Source: Candidatus Korarchaeum sp.
GTDB taxonomy: Archaea > Korarchaeota > Korarchaeia > Korarchaeales > Korarchaeaceae
Assembly (NCBI GenBank): GCA_038888615.1
Contig: JAWAID010000002.1
Coordinates: forward strand, 461,594 to 525,593
DNA length: 64,000 bases
Reading direction: 5' to 3'
The notes below the pieces were generated by a model, which had not been told where the DNA came from, searched no databases, and was given only the letters and a program-made list of their open reading frames with translations. How positions within the stretch are numbered: position 1 is the stretch's first letter; each line of letters begins with the position of its first letter. This document shows positions 38,703-49,414 of the stretch, one piece after another. A program made the position numbers and the translations under genes.

Positions 38703-40163
38703 ATGCTCCGGAGCAGTATGCCGAAGTTGACCCTCCTCAGGAAGGTGGCCTCGAACCCCAGGGTGAGTCCGGAGCTCCTCTCAGTCTTATCTAACTTGGA
38801 GGAGAGGAGCTTGCTTAAGCTGATCTCCCGGAACCCGAACACCCCTCCGGAGGTCCTGGAAAGGCTCTCCTCCTCAGACGACGAGGGGATAAGGATATAC
38901 GTGGCCTCTCACGCTAACTGTCCCGAGGAGGCTCTGAGGAGGCTAGCGAGGGATCCCTCCCCTGCGGTCAGGAAATCGGTCTTAGAAAATCCTAAGAGGT
39001 CTAGGGAGATCCTAGAGATCCTTTCTCAAGACCCTGACCCTGAGGTAAGAGCTAAGGTAGCTGAACACGCTCATCCCGAGCTGCTAACGAAATTAGCTTC
39101 TGATGAGAGCGTTAAAGTGAGGAAAGCCGTAGCATCTAACTCCAACACACCCCTGGACTCCCTGATCTCGCTGAGCAGGGACCCCTCCGTGGAGGTGAGG
39201 GCCGCGGTGGCGGGGAACCCATCAGCCGAAGCGCTGCTCGGCATGCTGGCTGGTGATGAGGAGATCGTCAGGATAGCTGTAGCTAGCAACGGGAGGATAC
39301 CCGGGGAAGTCCAGGATAAGCTGTTGAATGACCCCTCAGGCTACGTCCTCGAAGCCCTCTCGAGGAACCCCTCCGTCAAACCCGAGGTACTGAGGGTCCT
39401 CGCTAGGCACTCGAGCGAGTGGGTCAGGAGGGGAGTGGCCTCAAACAGATCAGCCCCAAAGGAGCTTTTAAGGGAACTGGCTAGAGATAGCAGTGAGAAC
39501 GTGAGGCTAGCTGTCGCTTTAAACACATCAACCCCTCCGGACGTCCTCATGAGCCTAGCCGAGTCAGGAGGGGAGAGGATCAAGGTGGCCGTAGCTTCAA
39601 ACGCGAACACTCCTCAGGAGGTCCTGAGGAGGCTCTCAGGGGAGGGCAGTAAGGATTTGGTCCTGATGTTAGCGGAGAACCCCAACTGCCCCAAAGACCT
39701 GCTACTCAAATTAGCTAGATCAGGTGACCCGGAGGTTAAAGCAGCTGTTGCTAGGAACCCAAGCGCCCCTCAGGAGGTATTCGATGAGCTGGCTAAGTCC
39801 AACAACGTCTACCTGATGATGATCGCTGCGATGGATCCTAGGACCAGGGAGGAGACGTTGAAGCTAATAGCGACGAGCGAAAATCTTGAGGTCAAGGATA
39901 GCCTTCTCTTAAACCCTAAACTGAGTCCGGACGTCATCAGGGAACTCATCGAGGAACCGACACCTACGCTAAAGTTGAGGATGGCCCTAGACCCTAAGAC
40001 GAGTCCTGAAACTTTAAAAAGACTCTCTGAGGAGGAAGACGAGGACATAAGGGTTGCTGTAGCGCTTAATCCCTCGACACCGCTCGATGTGATCGTGGAG
40101 CTCTCTAAGGACCGTAGTGAGTTGGTGCGTAAGGTAGCGGTGGAGAGGCTCTTCGGGAGGTAG
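38703..40163 (+). CDS. Leucine-rich-repeat-variant (LRV) solenoid protein
   Basis: 486 residues made almost fully of about 18 tandem units of 24 residues with the pattern VRxAVAxNPxTPxEVLxxLAxD, for example [20 protein letters not shown] and [20 protein letters not shown]. This LRV/HEAT-like superhelix is a protein-binding scaffold. Bacterial LRV proteins carry a 4Fe-4S cluster module, which is absent here (no cysteine cluster). The partner is unknown. A TATA-like TTTTAATAAATAAG lies 15-25 nt upstream. Confidence 0.85.
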
Positions 40164-42687: not shown

Positions 42688-44211
42688 CTAATGGGATCGA
42701 CGGACCTCACCGATGGCGCCCTTCTCGAAGATCCTATTCAAGGCCTCTTCGAGGGCCTTCACGGATGCCTCCAGGATGTCCCTACTTGTTCCAGTGGCTT
42801 GAACCTCACCCGATGGTCCTAGGACCCCTATAGTGAGCTCCCCTATGGCTTCGGATCCCGTTGAGACAGCTCTAAGCCTGAACTTCCTCAAGGTTATACG
42901 CGGGACCCCTTGGATCGATATCAGAGCCTTGGTCAACGCGTCAACGGGGCCGACTCCGCTGGAGGAGGAGACGACCTCTCTGCCCCCCACTGAGGCTCTA
43001 ACGGTGGCCGTTGGGGTCACTCCGCTGCCGGTGACTACCACCCAATCCCTCACCCTGAACCACTTCGACTCGATGCCGAGTACCTCCTCCACCACGGACC
43101 TCATCAACGCCTCGGTTATCCTAACTCCCTCCTCCGAGAGACCCTTCACCCTCTCGAGTATGCTATCCAGCTGCTCCTCGGATGCCGCGTAACCCATCTC
43201 CCTCAGCACCTCCTGAACGGCCGTCCTTCCGGAGAGACCACCTACCCAGAACTTCCTCCTCCTCCCTACCTCCTCAGGGCTTATGAGCTCGTAGCTAGAT
43301 GGCTCCATCGATATGGCTCTCACGTGAACTCCGGCTTCGTAGGTGAACGTGAGATTCCCAACCACGGGAGAGATCTCGTGCAGAGGGATCCCGCTCACCC
43401 TCTCGACTACCTCGCTTAGGCTAGCCAGAAGATCCATCTTGACGCTCGTATCGATTCCCGCTAACTTCCTCAAAGCCACCACCACCTGCTCGAGAGGAGC
43501 TATACCAGCCTTAGGCCCTAGGCCGTTAACGGCCACGTGCACCTGATCAGCTCCCTCCAGCGCAGCGGTGACGGAGTTGGCCGTAGCCATGCCGAAGTCG
43601 TTGAAGAAGGTGACGCTAAGGGGGGCCCTGAACCTCCCCTTAGCTTCCCTAACTACCTCCCTCACCCCATCGGGGAGGAGAGCCCCCACGGGATCGCTCA
43701 GGTTTATCCTGTCAGCACCGCTCTGAAGAGCTACCTCACAGGCCCTCCACAGGAAATCCCTGCTCGCCCTCCCGAAGTCCTCAGCTGTGAACTCCACGAT
43801 CAAACCCGATGACTTGGCGAAGCTCACTGATTCCTCTATCCTCCTCAAAGCCTCCTCCCCGCTTATGCCTATGGCCCTGAGGAGTTTCTCGCTCACTGGG
43901 ATGAATATGTTGACGCTATCGACCTCCGTCTCAGCGGCAGCCTCAACGTCCTCCTTGAGGGCCCTAGCCAGGGCGCAGAGCTCTGGTGAGAAACCGGATC
44001 TTGAGACCCTCCTAACAGCTCTAACAACCTCTTTCGTGATCTTCTTTTCGCTATCCGAGTAGGAAGGGAAACCAGCTTCTATCACGTCAACGCCCGCAGT
44101 ATCCAGGTGAGTTGCCACCTCAACCCTTCCCTCGAGACCGAAGGAGACGCCTGGGACCATCTCACCCAAGGTGAGCGTGGAGTCGAAGATCCTCACCCTC
44201 CTAGGGGACAT
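42688..44211 (-). CDS. 2-isopropylmalate synthase homologue with lost active site
   Basis: 507 residues with the LeuA/citramalate/homocitrate synthase layout and a C-terminal LeuA regulatory domain (SGVGPVDALTKALISI). Compared with M. jannaschii LeuA, DTTLRDGEQ is DSTLTLGEM (catalytic Arg gone), the metal ligands in VHCHND are VTFFND, and FAHEAGIHV is FTYEAGVHV; GERAGN is GPKAGI. So it cannot bind the metal or condense in the usual way. The fold is well kept, so it is a pseudoenzyme or a new activity, perhaps sensing an amino acid. ATG 44211 is chosen since TTATAA lies 25 nt upstream; 44259 would add 16 residues. Confidence 0.8.
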   Translation of the reverse strand: MSPRRVRIFDSTLTLGEMVPGVSFGLEGRVEVATHLDTAGVDVIEAGFPSYSDSEKKITKEVVRAVRRVSRSGFSPELCALARALKEDVEAAAETEVDSVNIFIPVSEKLLRAIGISGEEALRRIEESVSFAKSSGLIVEFTAEDFGRASRDFLWRACEVALQSGADRINLSDPVGALLPDGVREVVREAKGRFRAPLSVTFFNDFGMATANSVTAALEGADQVHVAVNGLGPKAGIAPLEQVVVALRKLAGIDTSVKMDLLASLSEVVERVSGIPLHEISPVVGNLTFTYEAGVHVRAISMEPSSYELISPEEVGRRRKFWVGGLSGRTAVQEVLREMGYAASEEQLDSILERVKGLSEEGVRITEALMRSVVEEVLGIESKWFRVRDWVVVTGSGVTPTATVRASVGGREVVSSSSGVGPVDALTKALISIQGVPRITLRKFRLRAVSTGSEAIGELTIGVLGPSGEVQATGTSRDILEASVKALEEALNRIFEKGAIGEVRRSH

Positions 44212-44259
44212 GTGGGTTCTGAGCCGCGTGCTCTTATAATCGCATAGCCCTCGGGTCAC

Positions 44260-44817
44260 GAGCCCCCATCATGCCGAACCCCCATCGACCCTCGGAGCCC
44301 CCTGCTTGGAGGAGGCACTGAGATAACTTATCGCGGCTTTCAGCTTCCTGGTGCTCCTCCCTTACCCTCAATCGCCCTCATCATTACCCCCTGCAGCCTG
44401 CTTCGAGGAAGTCGAAGATATCTTCAAGTCGTTTTCACGCTCTAAACTTTAGAGAACTCCGCATCTTCCCCTATATCCGCGGCCTCCTGTTTCATAGAGC
44501 TTCCCGATGGAAGCCGTTGCGATCGGTCTTAAGGAGCTCCTAGCGCGTCCTCCCTTCACGGTAGATCCCCCTACCCAACACTGAAATGCATCCTAAATCG
44601 AGCTTTGACGCGTTCCCTTTGATCTCAGTCCGGCAGCAGGGATCCGAATCTCCCGTAAACTTCCTGAGCGTAAGGGCATGAGCCCAACCCTCCCATAGAT
44701 ACCTTTTGCTCCGCTTTCAGGAGTTTTTTCTTACGCCCACTGAGGATCGATAAGATGTTCTCCACACCTGAAGGCGACGCTAAGGACCCGAAACCGCTGA
44801 TGCTCAAGAGCTTAAGG
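44260..44817. other. Intergenic region, nothing recognised
   Basis: About 560 bases between two minus-strand genes. The TATA box of the LeuA-like gene (44229-44241) lies just downstream. No coding frame with a family signature seen. Confidence 0.4.
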
Positions 44818-47328
44818 CTACATCCTCTCCCAGGCCCTCTCAGGAGGGCTCACCGATTTGGACGGGAGGGCCACTACCTCCACCTCCACCTGCACCGGGA
44901 ACGGGACGCTGCTTCCCATCCCCCAGATGAGGGCCTCGTGATCGGATAACATGGGTAGGTAGTATTGAATGTCCTCGACCTCCGTGTACTTAGCTATGGC
45001 TTCCTGATCGTTCCCGTTCCTCAACCTGAAAGCTACAACCGTATTAGCCTGACTTATGATGCTCTTGCTCACGTAAGCGGGTCTCTGCGTAACCACTATG
45101 AACCCCAGGTTGTAACCACCGGCCTGGCTTATCGCCTCTATCAATGACTGAGCGGTCCCTACCTCGTAGGGGTCCCCTACTATCGAGAACCCCCTCTCGG
45201 GGATGAGGTACTGAGCTTCCTCTATCACCACTATCAGCGCGAAGTCCCCTTCCCTCTTCCTAGAGATAGCGTAGCTCGCTAACTCCTCAACAACGCTCTT
45301 AACCGTGAGGAACTGCTCCTCATACCTCCTATCGGATGAGAAATCGAGTATCACTAAGGGGTTCCTCCTGACCTCCTCGACCACGCTAAGCCCCCCTCCT
45401 GAGTCGAGTTTCTGAGCTTCCCTCCTCAGCCTGGACTCCATCTCGGCAGCCATGGAGGGCTTGACCCTCATCTCCCTAGCGATCCTCCTGAGGGACCTCA
45501 GGGCCTGCTCTAAATCGCCCTCAGCCTCCCTCAGGGCGGAGGTGAGGATCCTGTAGGAGAGCGTCCCCGCTTTGTAACCTAGCCTCCTGGCTATGGAGTG
45601 GGGACTCATCGATCTCACGTTCGGTAGGAAGGAGGAATAATCGTAAACGACCCCTCCCTTAGCTGTTAGCCTCTCGTACTCCCCCCTCCTATCGAGCACG
45701 AGGAACCGAGGCCTCGGCTTGAGCTCGGAGGCCTTCGCTATCAAGCTGGCTACGAAGCTGCTATTATGGACGAAAGCACCGTTAGCCAGGAAGCTCTGGG
45801 TCTCGGGGACATCTAGGTCGTAAACGTACTTGGTGTTCGTGTAAACCTTCCTCACGCTCACTACCCTCTCCAAGTTAACGGAAGCCTTGTAGATCAATCC
45901 CTCCCTCTTCGGCAGAGCCCTCACCTGGAGCGATCCCCCATCCATGCCCAGGCTCCTCTCCCCCCAGCTCTCAATACGGTCCATGAGGACCCTCAGGGAG
46001 AGGGGGTCCACCGAGAGGCCCCCGGGGCAGAACCTCAGGGTGGTGACGCCCAGCAGGGAGAGGACCGTTGAGAGAGCGGTGGACCTGCTCTCCCCACAGA
46101 GGATGAGCGAGCTCCCCCTGGTATCGTGGATCGAGCACCTGACTAAGAGCTCCCTGAGCGCTCTGGCCAAGGGGTAGTACCTTCCCCCGATCCCCTCCGT
46201 CTCGGAGGGGAGACTCAAGAGGGATGAGAGACCGTGCGAGACCATCCTAGAGAGCTCCCGCGATCTAACGAATACCCCCTTGTTATCCAGTACCCTGTGC
46301 TCAAGGCCCGCCTCGAGGCAGGCTAGCCTGACATCAGCTATATCGGAATCCATCACGAGGACCCCGTCCTTCATAGCTACTCCCGATGCCAAGGAGAGGC
46401 CCAACAGCCTATCGAAGTAGTGGGGCAATGAGCCCGGCCTCAGCTGAACCCCCCTCGGCACCACTAAGTACTTCTCCCTCATGCCCGCTAGCTTCCTGGG
46501 GTTTACCGCGAACAGGTTGCTCCCATCAGTCACGAGCAAGCTGTGGTCCTCGGTGACCCTGATCCTCCTCCCAACCGAGGTCTCGACTTCGTAGACGTCC
46601 TTATCGAGTGTGTGTCTATAAACTCCAGCTAGCTCGCACCACTTAGGCAGGAAGTCGCTCCCCAAGGAGAGGGTCTCGTAACCCAATCCCCTAAGGTCCA
46701 GTAGGACGTCGTCCTTGACCTCCTTAGGGACCTTGCTCTCGAAGAACTTCTCCACGGGGCCTATGAAGTACTCCCTCCTCTTAGAGTCGTAAATCACTAC
46801 TACGCTATCCCCAGTGACGCTCTTCCCACTTCTAGTCATCCCGGTGACGAACATGTGACCCTTGGCCACCGCAGCGAGGTCTATCGCGAAGGGCACCCTG
46901 GTTCCCCTTATCCTGCCCACCCTCAGGGGGAGCCCCTGGGAGAAGGGGGGTGTGAGGAAGCCGGAGAGCTCCCCGGGCTCGGGTCTCATGACCCTCGAGA
47001 GCGTCGAAGGTGGGGCCTCCAGGGGCCTTATCCTCCCAGACTCGGGATCCCTGTACCCTAGGACCTCACAGTCAGCTATCAGATACTCAAGCTCACTGCT
47101 GTAGTTCGAGATCAACCCTGAACTACTCGCTATCAAACCCGTTTTTCCTAGTTCCACTTCCTCGTTTATCGTCTGTATCTCCTTAACCCTGAGGAATACC
47201 GGAGCTCCTTCCCAGGGATGGTCGATCACGTAGAAATCCCCCAAGGATACCTTCACACCCTTAAGAGCGACGAACATTATTCTTCTGGGTGTGGAGCGGG
47301 AGATCACGTGACCGACGACTTCCCTCAA
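44818..47328 (-). CDS. herA: HerA-type DNA translocase with intein (pair 2)
   Basis: 836 codons, of which residues 170-522 are an intein; the mature HerA is about 483 residues. Extein parts show the HAS-barrel, Walker A TGMTRSGK (162-169) joined after splicing to SSFVASLIAKA, VLDRRGEYERL, LIVVIEEAQYLIP (Walker B) and VVTQRPAYVSKSI. It pumps DNA for NurA and Mre11-Rad50 end resection, and splicing is needed to restore the ATP-binding loop. It overlaps nurA (4 nt). Confidence 0.93.
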   Translation of the reverse strand: MREVVGHVISRSTPRRIMFVALKGVKVSLGDFYVIDHPWEGAPVFLRVKEIQTINEEVELGKTGLIASSSGLISNYSSELEYLIADCEVLGYRDPESGRIRPLEAPPSTLSRVMRPEPGELSGFLTPPFSQGLPLRVGRIRGTRVPFAIDLAAVAKGHMFVTGMTRSGKSVTGDSVVVIYDSKRREYFIGPVEKFFESKVPKEVKDDVLLDLRGLGYETLSLGSDFLPKWCELAGVYRHTLDKDVYEVETSVGRRIRVTEDHSLLVTDGSNLFAVNPRKLAGMREKYLVVPRGVQLRPGSLPHYFDRLLGLSLASGVAMKDGVLVMDSDIADVRLACLEAGLEHRVLDNKGVFVRSRELSRMVSHGLSSLLSLPSETEGIGGRYYPLARALRELLVRCSIHDTRGSSLILCGESRSTALSTVLSLLGVTTLRFCPGGLSVDPLSLRVLMDRIESWGERSLGMDGGSLQVRALPKREGLIYKASVNLERVVSVRKVYTNTKYVYDLDVPETQSFLANGAFVHNSSFVASLIAKASELKPRPRFLVLDRRGEYERLTAKGGVVYDYSSFLPNVRSMSPHSIARRLGYKAGTLSYRILTSALREAEGDLEQALRSLRRIAREMRVKPSMAAEMESRLRREAQKLDSGGGLSVVEEVRRNPLVILDFSSDRRYEEQFLTVKSVVEELASYAISRKREGDFALIVVIEEAQYLIPERGFSIVGDPYEVGTAQSLIEAISQAGGYNLGFIVVTQRPAYVSKSIISQANTVVAFRLRNGNDQEAIAKYTEVEDIQYYLPMLSDHEALIWGMGSSVPFPVQVEVEVVALPSKSVSPPERAWERM
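45763..46821 (-). other. Intein in HerA, inserted in the P-loop
   Basis: A 353-residue intein of Ser-1 type, SVTGDSVVVIYDS at the start (block A), VTEDHSLLV (block B, TxxH), and VYDLDVPETQSFLANGAFVHN-like block F/G ending in His-Asn, followed by Ser of the C-extein. A central 180-residue part would be the homing-endonuclease zone; only LLGLSLASG resembles a LAGLIDADG helix and the second copy is not evident, so homing is probably dead. Confidence 0.92.
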
Positions 47329-48386
47329 TCGCTTTCACCCCTCTGCAGCGAGAATAAGGCGAACCTCTCCGAATCGATCCCCCTGGCCCTAGCCCCGCTT
47401 AAGAGCATCCTATACACCAGGGAAGCCTGTTTGTTAGTGAGCTTAGACAACCTGTCCACGGCTACTATAGGAAGGGGAAGTCCCGTGCTCGGTTCTGAGA
47501 AGGAGTATATCTGGGAGGCTATGGCATGAGCTACTTCCAGCGAGTACTCAGCCAGGTCTATCCTGATCGGGACCCTGCCTCTCCTCAAGAACATGGCCCA
47601 GGGCCTGAAGGAGCTGGCATCCCCCAGGAAGGGAGCCACCTCCTCCCATCCCCCGCTGGCTGGTAGGGGTCCCAGCGCCTCACCCTCCCTCAGCAGGAGG
47701 GAGGAGAGGAGGGAGTCCGGTAGGCTATCCGCGCCGAGCCAGCTGGATATGTAGTGGCTCCTCACCCTCTTGACCACGCCGATCACGTGCTTCCCGGAAG
47801 CCTTGGCCTCCCTGAGCAAGCCGGATAGGGAGCGCAGCGCGGCCTCGTACACCTCCAGGTAACTGGGGGAGTAGATCCTACCCCTGGGGGCGTAGTAGCT
47901 CCTGGGTAAGTAGAGGGGGCCGTCTATGAGCACAAGCTCGCTCTTCCTGAGGAGGATGGAAGCCAAGTTGTACATCAGGTAGTAGCCCATGAGCGACGAT
48001 ACCTTCACGCCCTCCTCCTCATCCAGGCTCGATTGAGGGGGCCTCAGGGTAGCTAGGAGGGGCTCGGATATCCTCAGGCCCCCTATGAACACCGCCCCTA
48101 CGGCCAGGCTCATCGGCTGATAACCTATCAGCAGGTCCTTACCGCTCGAGCCCGAATCGACGGCGGCTACGCGGGAGCTCGTGGCCTCAGCTTTCAGCGA
48201 TGTCAGGGGTAAAAGGTCCCTGAGCTTAGGAGCGATGGCCTCAGCCCTATCTATGAGCTCGATTATGTTTGAGAGGAGGTCCCTTGAGATCTCGCTCAGC
48301 ACCTCGTTGTACTTGCTGTAGGGCCTCACCTCGGGCGCTAGCCTCGATAGGCCAGCCTCACTGAGATCCTCATCTCCTCTTTTCAT
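47325..48386 (-). CDS. nurA: NurA-domain nuclease (pair 2)
   Basis: 353 residues with RVAAVDSGSSGKDLL (catalytic Asp, residues about 72-86), ELVLIDGPLYLP, HVIGVVKRVRSHY and LPIVAVDRLSKL in NurA order. It stands first in a two-gene unit with herA. The N-terminal helical part is about as long as that of pair 1, but the sequences are dissimilar, so the pairs are ancient paralogues. Confidence 0.88.
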   Translation of the reverse strand: MKRGDEDLSEAGLSRLAPEVRPYSKYNEVLSEISRDLLSNIIELIDRAEAIAPKLRDLLPLTSLKAEATSSRVAAVDSGSSGKDLLIGYQPMSLAVGAVFIGGLRISEPLLATLRPPQSSLDEEEGVKVSSLMGYYLMYNLASILLRKSELVLIDGPLYLPRSYYAPRGRIYSPSYLEVYEAALRSLSGLLREAKASGKHVIGVVKRVRSHYISSWLGADSLPDSLLSSLLLREGEALGPLPASGGWEEVAPFLGDASSFRPWAMFLRRGRVPIRIDLAEYSLEVAHAIASQIYSFSEPSTGLPLPIVAVDRLSKLTNKQASLVYRMLLSGARARGIDSERFALFSLQRGESD

Positions 48387-48565: not shown

Positions 48566-49414
48566 ATGTCGGTCAGGGAGGTGGGGGCTGGGCAAACACT
48601 GAGGAGAATAGGGAGTGTCTTAAAACCAAAATATGAGAAACTAATAGATCTTTCTGACTCTTGGTACATTTTAATTGCCCCTACCTCCGCTAACTTCTCT
48701 CTCCTCTCTGATATCATTTCGAACGATCTGAGGATGATAGTTTCAGCTATCCTCGTGAACGACGGGTCCGCCGGTGAGGGGATCGAGGAGTTCAAGGGGA
48801 AGCTGATAGCCCTAAACGGTAGGGAGAAGGTGATAGAGGAGATACTGGGTAAGGTAGATCAGGTGAAGATGATATCCCACTTCTCAGAGCTATCGGAGTT
48901 AATGAGGGGTTATGAGAGAGGACTGGGGCTCAGGGCTCTCGTTATATGCTCAGGGCCCTATAAGATAGACCTCTTCCACCTCTCACTCTACCTGAACGCG
49001 AGGGCGATAGAACTGGGGGAGGAGGGTTACAGGGAACTGGTAGCGTACCCTACCTGGAAGCTGAGCGAGGTATCCCTATCCATACTCTACGTAGCCATGC
49101 TCCTGGAGGAGGTCGGGGAGAGGGTAACTCCTCACAACTTGGCTAAGTACGTCAAGCTGAGGGAGAAGGGAGGGGACACGAGATCGAAGGTGGTGAGCTT
49201 GGACTACCACGTCAGGAAGTACTTGGAGGTAGATGGGCTCCTCCAGAAGGAGAGGGACACCGAGAGCAGGAGGGGTATAGCTTACAAGCTCACTCCCAAG
49301 GGCCTGAGTGTAGCTAAGCTAGTAGAAGCCCACTTCAAGAGCTTAGGAATGAGGATGGAGGATCACGTTGATGTGGAAGCGTTGAGGCAGTTCATCAAAG
49401 TCGAGGTGGAGTGA
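48566..49414 (+). CDS. Winged-helix regulator with possible CARF-like N-domain
   Basis: 282 residues. The C-terminal half (residues about 170-262) is a winged helix: EVSLSILYVAMLLEEVG, SLDYHVRKYLEVDGLLQKER and AYKLTPKGLSVAKLVEAHF. The N-terminal part alternates strands and helices like a Rossmann fold, and ALVICSGPYKIDLFHLSLYL resembles the sugar-nucleotide loop of CARF domains. It would sense a nucleotide signal and bind DNA. No cas gene is in the window, so a CRISPR link is not claimed. It is divergent from the nurA-herA unit. Confidence 0.5.
   Translation: MSVREVGAGQTLRRIGSVLKPKYEKLIDLSDSWYILIAPTSANFSLLSDIISNDLRMIVSAILVNDGSAGEGIEEFKGKLIALNGREKVIEEILGKVDQVKMISHFSELSELMRGYERGLGLRALVICSGPYKIDLFHLSLYLNARAIELGEEGYRELVAYPTWKLSEVSLSILYVAMLLEEVGERVTPHNLAKYVKLREKGGDTRSKVVSLDYHVRKYLEVDGLLQKERDTESRRGIAYKLTPKGLSVAKLVEAHFKSLGMRMEDHVDVEALRQFIKVEVE

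What the first reader, a model, noticed from the sequence alone, without database searches (positions are those of the whole stretch)
42688..44211. Isopropylmalate-synthase fold that has lost catalytic and metal-binding residues
Position by position against M. jannaschii LeuA: R in TLRDGEQ is T, both His of VHCHND are T and F, His of FAHEAGIHV is Y, and GERAGN is GPKAGI. Yet the fold and the LeuA regulatory domain are well kept and the frame is open for 507 codons. Selection keeps something other than the usual reaction.
Basis: partly seen in the sequence, partly recalled or inferred. Interest (0 to 1): 0.62.

Follow-up and report, generated by a model that had tools for sequence, protein, structure and literature searches.

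The report
Catalytically dead LeuA paralogue in Korarchaeum
A gene that looks like the first enzyme of leucine synthesis has lost every residue that holds its metal and keto-acid substrate, yet an entire genus of archaea has kept it intact, with its amino-acid-sensing domain little changed, so it probably senses or regulates rather than catalyses.

Summary
The protein is a full-length isopropylmalate synthase (LeuA) paralogue. All three metal ligands (D, H, H), the superfamily-invariant Arg, and the Gln and Thr that position the two substrates are gone. It is not a decaying copy. Orthologues occur in 15 of 16 genomes of the genus (probably Ca. Korarchaeum). They share the losses, and dN/dS among closer pairs is about 0.04-0.13, the same as for the genuine LeuA. 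No orthologue was seen outside the genus. The same genome has a canonical leuA operon elsewhere. The regulatory domain groups with Korarchaeum LeuA and has not evolved faster, whereas the barrel has. One genome with no leuA, leucine operon, ilvC or ilvD still keeps the paralogue, so it is not simply a LeuA subunit. It usually sits directly behind nurA-herA. Best reading: a non-condensing pseudoenzyme kept as a leucine (or similar) sensing regulatory protein. Ligand and partner are inferred, not shown.

The parts
42688..44211 (-). CDS of the pseudo-LeuA, 507 aa, starting at the ATG (an upstream in-frame GTG at 44259 is probably not used)
   Evidence: the orthologues start at the equivalent Met; open frame, orthologue identity 56-84%
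43405..44199 (-). HMGL-like TIM barrel (former catalytic domain)
   Evidence: PF00682, residues 21-285; AlphaFold2 model pLDDT 88.8, VIA Z 48.2 to 6E1J, rmsd 2.5 over 376 residues
44158..44178 (-). TLTLGEM: the TLRDGEQ motif with R, D (metal ligand) and Q lost
43780..43782 (-). E160, retained partner of the general base (Glu227 of the 6E1J enzyme)
43597..43614 (-). VTFFND: the VHCHND motif with both metal-binding His lost
43501..43518 (-). GPKAGI: the GERAGN motif; the Pro-Lys is invariant in the new family
43324..43341 (-). YEAGVH: first His changed to an invariant Tyr; second His (H312, general base) retained and invariant
43129..43365 (-). post-barrel linker domain (HCS_D2), including retained Y323
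   Evidence: residue mapping with PMC11532901
42730..43119 (-). LeuA_dimer allosteric (leucine-binding) domain; GVGPVDA loop intact
   Evidence: 94.5 bits; 18 of 22 LeuA-conserved positions kept; not accelerated
44212..44817 (-). 606-nt non-coding spacer between herA and pseudo-leuA, peculiar to this genome (about 24-49 nt in the other linked genomes)
44818..47328 (-). herA with an intein; upstream neighbour, same strand
   Evidence: DUF87/HerA + Intein_splicing; synteny
47325..48386 (-). nurA; upstream neighbour, overlaps herA
   Evidence: PF09376; synteny

Best explanation
It is a LeuA paralogue that arose by duplication in the Korarchaeum lineage and became a pseudoenzyme. The barrel can no longer bind the divalent metal and 2-oxo acid or stabilise the enolate, so it cannot make isopropylmalate. 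The dimer/allosteric domain has been kept under about the same constraint as in the true LeuA. The likely mechanism is that the protein still binds leucine or a similar small ligand in the LeuA_dimer domain. The ligand changes the conformation of the linker and barrel, and the remodelled barrel passes this on to a partner, as a stand-alone sensor and not as a catalyst. Shown: the residue losses, genus-wide conservation, purifying selection, domain-specific rates, and persistence without LeuA. Inferred: loss of activity, ligand, dimerisation and output. The partner is unknown.
For: Loss of every metal ligand plus R, Q and T. In the 6E1J-family enzyme R89A/K/Q, Q93A/N and T257A each abolish activity (PMC11532901), and R80A/K are listed as destroying it in M. 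tuberculosis LeuA (PMC10464499). Orthologues in 15/16 genomes of the genus with dN/dS 0.035-0.13 among closer pairs, equal to true LeuA. New residues are fixed in the old pocket motifs (V35, F218, P249, K250, E295, L303, Y307), while the former ligand positions drift among mostly non-ligating residues. Regulatory domain: 18/22 LeuA-conserved positions kept; grouped with the genus's LeuA at 100/99 support; distance to other archaeal LeuA 3.04 against 3.13 for true LeuA, so not accelerated, whereas the barrel is (1.40 against 0.92). G002, which lacks LeuA, the leucine operon's LeuC and LeuB, IlvC and IlvD, keeps the paralogue on a short branch. A canonical leu operon is present in the same genome.
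Against: The general-base group E160/H312/Y323 is invariant, which is more than a pure sensor needs and could mean that CoA-thioester binding or some chemistry remains. The newly fixed pocket residues could serve a new active site. No ligand, partner or output is shown. The best-conserved neighbours are nurA-herA (DNA end processing), with no obvious link to leucine. G002 is a single MAG (99% complete, 3% contaminated).
Confidence: 0.5

Rival explanations
1. Regulatory (non-catalytic) subunit of LeuA: it forms heterodimers with the true LeuA and tunes its leucine feedback. If, as I recall for structures of this family, the general base reaches into the partner's active site, the pseudo-subunit would lend H312/Y323 to LeuA's intact metal site, giving one working site per heterodimer.
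For: It explains why the general-base group is kept while the metal half-site is lost, and why the regulatory domain stays LeuA-like. 14 of the 15 genomes with the paralogue also have LeuA. Paralogous yeast IPMSs (Leu4/Leu9) form heterodimers with altered leucine sensitivity (PMC7418496).
Against: G002 keeps the paralogue, with H312/E160/Y323 intact and on a short branch (0.30 from its fork, against about 0.46 and 0.86 for G006 and G000), without LeuA, the leucine operon, IlvC or IlvD. The gene is not in or near the leu operon in any genome examined. That the general base acts across the dimer was recalled, not tested here.
Confidence: 0.2
2. Neofunctionalised enzyme: a metal-independent reaction on a CoA thioester or other substrate that uses the retained E160/H312/Y323 group in a remodelled pocket.
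For: The acid/base group is invariant; so are the new residues P249-K250, Y307, F218, V35 and L303 in the former pocket motifs. Neighbouring genes are often oxidoreductases (Ldh_2 in most genomes, AOR in G002, G003 and G014), which may act on oxo/hydroxy acids or aldehydes.
Against: The Arg that stabilises the enolate is described as invariant and essential across DRE-TIM metallolyases (PMC11532901) and is Thr/Ser here. The pocket changes are mostly to hydrophobic residues. The neighbouring oxidoreductases differ between genomes and face the other way.
Confidence: 0.18
3. Accessory protein of the HerA-NurA DNA end-processing machinery, coupling it to metabolic state.
For: Pseudo-leuA follows herA on the same strand in 13 of 14 genomes examined, with spacers of about 24-49 nt in 12 of them and 606 nt here; nurA precedes herA wherever the contig reaches that far.
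Against: G002 has the gene unlinked from nurA, and family members outside the genus have NurA without the paralogue. A LeuA fold has no known link to DNA.
Confidence: 0.07
4. Decaying duplicate under relaxed selection.
For: Loss of catalytic residues; long stem branch (0.87).
Against: dN/dS 0.035-0.13 among the closer orthologues, equal to true LeuA; retained genus-wide with open frames over the aligned domains.
Confidence: 0.02

Closest known systems
2-isopropylmalate synthase LeuA (DRE-TIM metallolyase, PF00682 + PF22617 + PF08502)
   Same: Same three-domain architecture, 43% identity over full length to the true LeuA of the genus; regulatory domain kept; E/H/Y general-base group kept
   Different: All metal ligands, catalytic Arg, Gln and Thr lost; below every NCBIfam cut-off for IPMS, citramalate or homocitrate synthase
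Methylthioalkylmalate synthase MAMS (6E1J; best VIA match)
   Same: Also a LeuA paralogue born by duplication; barrel and linker superpose (Z 48.2, rmsd 2.5 over 376 residues)
   Different: MAMS kept the active site and lost the regulatory domain (PMC11532901); here it is the reverse
Yeast Leu4/Leu9 paralogous IPMS pair
   Same: Duplicated LeuA paralogues in one cell, with a regulatory consequence (PMC7418496)
   Different: Both yeast copies are active enzymes
HisZ, the regulatory subunit of short-form ATP phosphoribosyltransferase (HisG-S)
   Same: Non-catalytic regulatory protein that mediates amino-acid feedback (PMC9734150 abstract); a paralogue of a synthetase, by general knowledge
   Different: Unrelated fold; HisZ has a demonstrated partner, none is shown here

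Membership tests
2-isopropylmalate synthase (LeuA) | HMGL barrel + linker + LeuA_dimer domain | tested here: met
   all three above the Pfam cut-offs
2-isopropylmalate synthase (LeuA) | Metal ligands Asp, His, His (D90/H288/H290 in 6E1J) | tested here: not met
   L31, T217, F219; non-ligands in all orthologues apart from one His at the third position in three sequences
2-isopropylmalate synthase (LeuA) | Enolate-stabilising Arg (R89 in 6E1J) | tested here: not met
   T30 (T or S in all orthologues)
2-isopropylmalate synthase (LeuA) | Substrate-positioning Gln93 and Thr257 | tested here: not met
   M34 and P190 in this protein; Q kept only in the G002 orthologue; T or S at 190 in others
2-isopropylmalate synthase (LeuA) | General base His388 with Tyr399 and Glu227 | tested here: met
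   H312, Y323, E160, invariant
2-isopropylmalate synthase (LeuA) | NCBIfam score cut-offs for IPMS | tested here: not met
   best 456 against cut-off 517; the equivalogs far below
2-isopropylmalate synthase (LeuA) | Gene in a leucine operon (supporting, not strictly defining) | tested here: not met
   the true leuA lies with leuC and leuB; this gene lies behind nurA-herA
2-isopropylmalate synthase (LeuA) | Condensation activity | not testable with these tools
   needs purified protein
Pseudoenzyme | Conserved loss of catalytic residues under purifying selection | tested here: met
Leucine-binding sensor | Conserved allosteric domain under LeuA-like constraint | tested here: met
Leucine-binding sensor | Binding of leucine | not testable with these tools
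   needs calorimetry or thermal-shift assay
LeuA hetero-oligomer subunit | Occurs only together with LeuA | tested here: not met
   G002 lacks LeuA
LeuA hetero-oligomer subunit | Physical complex with LeuA | not testable with these tools
   no complex prediction or pull-down available

The most novel reading that the evidence does not exclude
A whole leucine-pathway enzyme has been converted into a stand-alone leucine (or acyl-CoA) receptor that controls something outside leucine synthesis, possibly DNA end processing by the probably co-transcribed HerA-NurA or the adjacent oxidoreductases. It is kept even by a lineage that lost leucine synthesis altogether. No LeuA-derived receptor was found in the papers searched.
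Probability: 0.3. Interest if true: 0.75.

Novelty: new variant of a known kind. Interest (0 to 1): 0.52.

Why it matters
Enzymes that give up catalysis to become sensors are a recognised evolutionary route, but no LeuA/DRE-TIM case was found in the papers searched here. This one is clean: the catalytic half-site was erased, the allosteric domain was held at the enzyme's own pace, and the gene outlives the pathway in one lineage. It also warns that automatic annotation would probably credit these archaea with a second isopropylmalate synthase that they do not have.

Tried and rejected
Decay under relaxed selection: rejected by dN/dS.

An alternative register that would restore ligands: rejected. 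The profile alignment is almost gap-free through all motifs, and H312 is the only invariant His.

A wider family: none above the gap in 394 genomes (full-length orthologues score 880-969 bits, everything else 573 or less, apart from one orthologue fragment at the end of a G004 contig). The genome-contig scan found only one close orthologue.

The third HMGL gene of the genome (C1:759 kb) is not a second pseudoenzyme: it keeps TLRDGQQ, HGHND and GERAGN and lies with leuC/D/B-like genes.

The first structure model, from 13 orthologues only, was poor (pLDDT 67.7) and was replaced by one from 47 sequences (88.8).

The 606-nt spacer has no second copy in the genome, no match in the fetched loci and no long open frame.

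Literature: nothing on this protein in the library. Leucine-pocket residues could not be taken from the M. tuberculosis structure paper, which is not held. The yeast hetero-oligomer paper itself is not held either; a later paper that summarises it was used.

Full report
What is there. The minus-strand frame 42688-44211 encodes 507 residues with the complete LeuA architecture: HMGL barrel, post-barrel linker and LeuA_dimer allosteric domain. The AlphaFold2 model from 47 relatives has pLDDT 88.8 and matches 6E1J (Z 48.2, rmsd 2.5 over 376 residues), 6KTQ and the M. tuberculosis LeuA structures. Residue numbers below are those of P0001, which starts 16 residues earlier at a GTG.

The active site. 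In the 6E1J enzyme the metal is held by D90, H288 and H290. R89 stabilises the enolate, Q93 and T257 place the substrates, and H388 is the general base with Y399 and E227 (PMC11532901). The phmmer alignment maps these to L31, T217, F219 (metal ligands), T30, M34, P190, and H312, Y323, E160. So the whole metal/2-oxo-acid half-site and the Arg are gone, and the general-base half is kept. Mutating R89, Q93 or T257 to Ala in that enzyme abolishes activity; R80A/K is listed as destroying it in M. tuberculosis LeuA (PMC10464499). Inactivity of this protein is therefore a strong inference, not a measurement.

It is a family. Fifteen of sixteen genomes of the genus carry an orthologue, at 56-84% identity; the missing one is a 70%-complete MAG with no HMGL gene at all. 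The G004 copy is cut by a contig end. G014 has two copies but 7% contamination, so one of them may be foreign. All orthologues that cover the motifs share the losses. The former ligand positions vary (T/S, L/Q, T/A, F/S/Y/H), while V35, F218, P249, K250, E295, L303 and Y307 are newly fixed. Scores fall from 880 or more to 573 or less outside the family (the cut G004 copy aside), in 394 genomes. The rest of the taxonomic family has neither this protein nor LeuA in the genomes searched. That the genus is Ca. Korarchaeum is my inference from the single-contig genome G010, whose length (1,590,757) I recall as that of K. cryptofilum.

Selection. Pairwise dN/dS among the closer orthologues is 0.035-0.13, and 0.034-0.14 for the true LeuA of the same genomes. 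More distant pairs have near-saturated dS and were not relied on. By domain, the regulatory domain groups with the genus's LeuA (100/99) and is no further from other archaeal LeuA than the true enzyme is (3.04 against 3.13). The barrel is further (1.40 against 0.92). The barrel tree alone places the group elsewhere, but one clade with the genus's LeuA is not rejected (p-AU 0.061), as expected for an accelerated barrel. The regulatory-domain tree carries a warning about long branches meeting, but raw identities tell the same story: 47.6% to the genus's LeuA against 36.7% to others. In plain terms, the duplicate changed its catalytic part and kept its allosteric part: 18 of 22 LeuA-conserved positions are kept in the regulatory domain against 49 of 74 in the barrel.

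Context. The genome's canonical LeuA lies with leuC and leuB elsewhere (C2:88-92 kb; the leuD frame was seen in G010). The pseudo-leuA follows herA on the same strand in 13 of 14 genomes examined, with spacers of about 24-49 nt in all but this one, where it is 606 nt; nurA precedes herA wherever the contig reaches that far. G004 could not be judged. In G002 the gene is instead beside an aldehyde:ferredoxin oxidoreductase. G002 has no LeuA and no leucine-operon LeuC or LeuB; its remaining aconitase-type hits are the third-synthase operon and a canonical aconitase at a contig end. It has no IlvD and no IlvC either. Yet its pseudo-LeuA keeps the family features and sits on a short branch.

Interpretation. 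The losses, the selection and the domain-specific rates are shown. That the protein is inactive follows from mutational work on relatives. That it binds leucine or a similar ligand is inferred from the constraint on the allosteric domain. G002 argues against an obligatory LeuA-partner role. The HerA-NurA link is synteny only and is absent in G002. Best reading: a LeuA-derived sensing or regulatory protein with an unknown partner (0.5). Main rivals: LeuA hetero-subunit (0.2) and a new metal-free enzyme using E160/H312/Y323 (0.18).

Novelty. No paper found in the library describes an inactive LeuA paralogue; the library omits most subscription journals. It is filed as a new variant of a known kind, a pseudoenzyme derived from a biosynthetic enzyme, and not as a member of the IPMS enzyme family, whose catalytic features were tested and not met.

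Noticed in passing
window 44818-47328 (-): HerA is interrupted by an intein (Intein_splicing, best stretch residues 236-522) that by eye is inserted in the P-loop GK|S; the complete HerA genes of the genus are equally long (830-854 aa).
   Followed up: partly
window 44212-44817: A 606-nt spacer between herA and the pseudo-leuA, against about 24-49 nt in the other linked genomes; single-copy in the genome and apparently non-coding.
   Followed up: partly
L069:8996-13065 (G000:C1:759-763 kb): A third, intact HMGL-family synthase in an operon with LeuC-, LeuD- and LeuB-like genes, possibly a Re-citrate-synthase or similar 2-oxoacid elongation set; kept in G002, which lost the leucine operon.
   Followed up: partly
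L066 (G002): G002 lacks LeuA, the leucine-operon LeuC and LeuB, IlvC and IlvD: an apparent branched-chain amino acid auxotroph in a genus where most genomes have these genes (G011 also lacks IlvC and IlvD hits).
   Followed up: partly
window 38703-40163 (+): A protein made almost wholly of LRV/HEAT-like repeats (486 aa), next to a DSP-type phosphatase.
   Followed up: no
window 48566-49414 (+): A conserved 282-aa protein divergent from nurA without any Pfam match; by eye its C-terminal part looks like a winged helix and the N-terminal part like a Rossmann-type (CARF-like) sensor.
   Followed up: no
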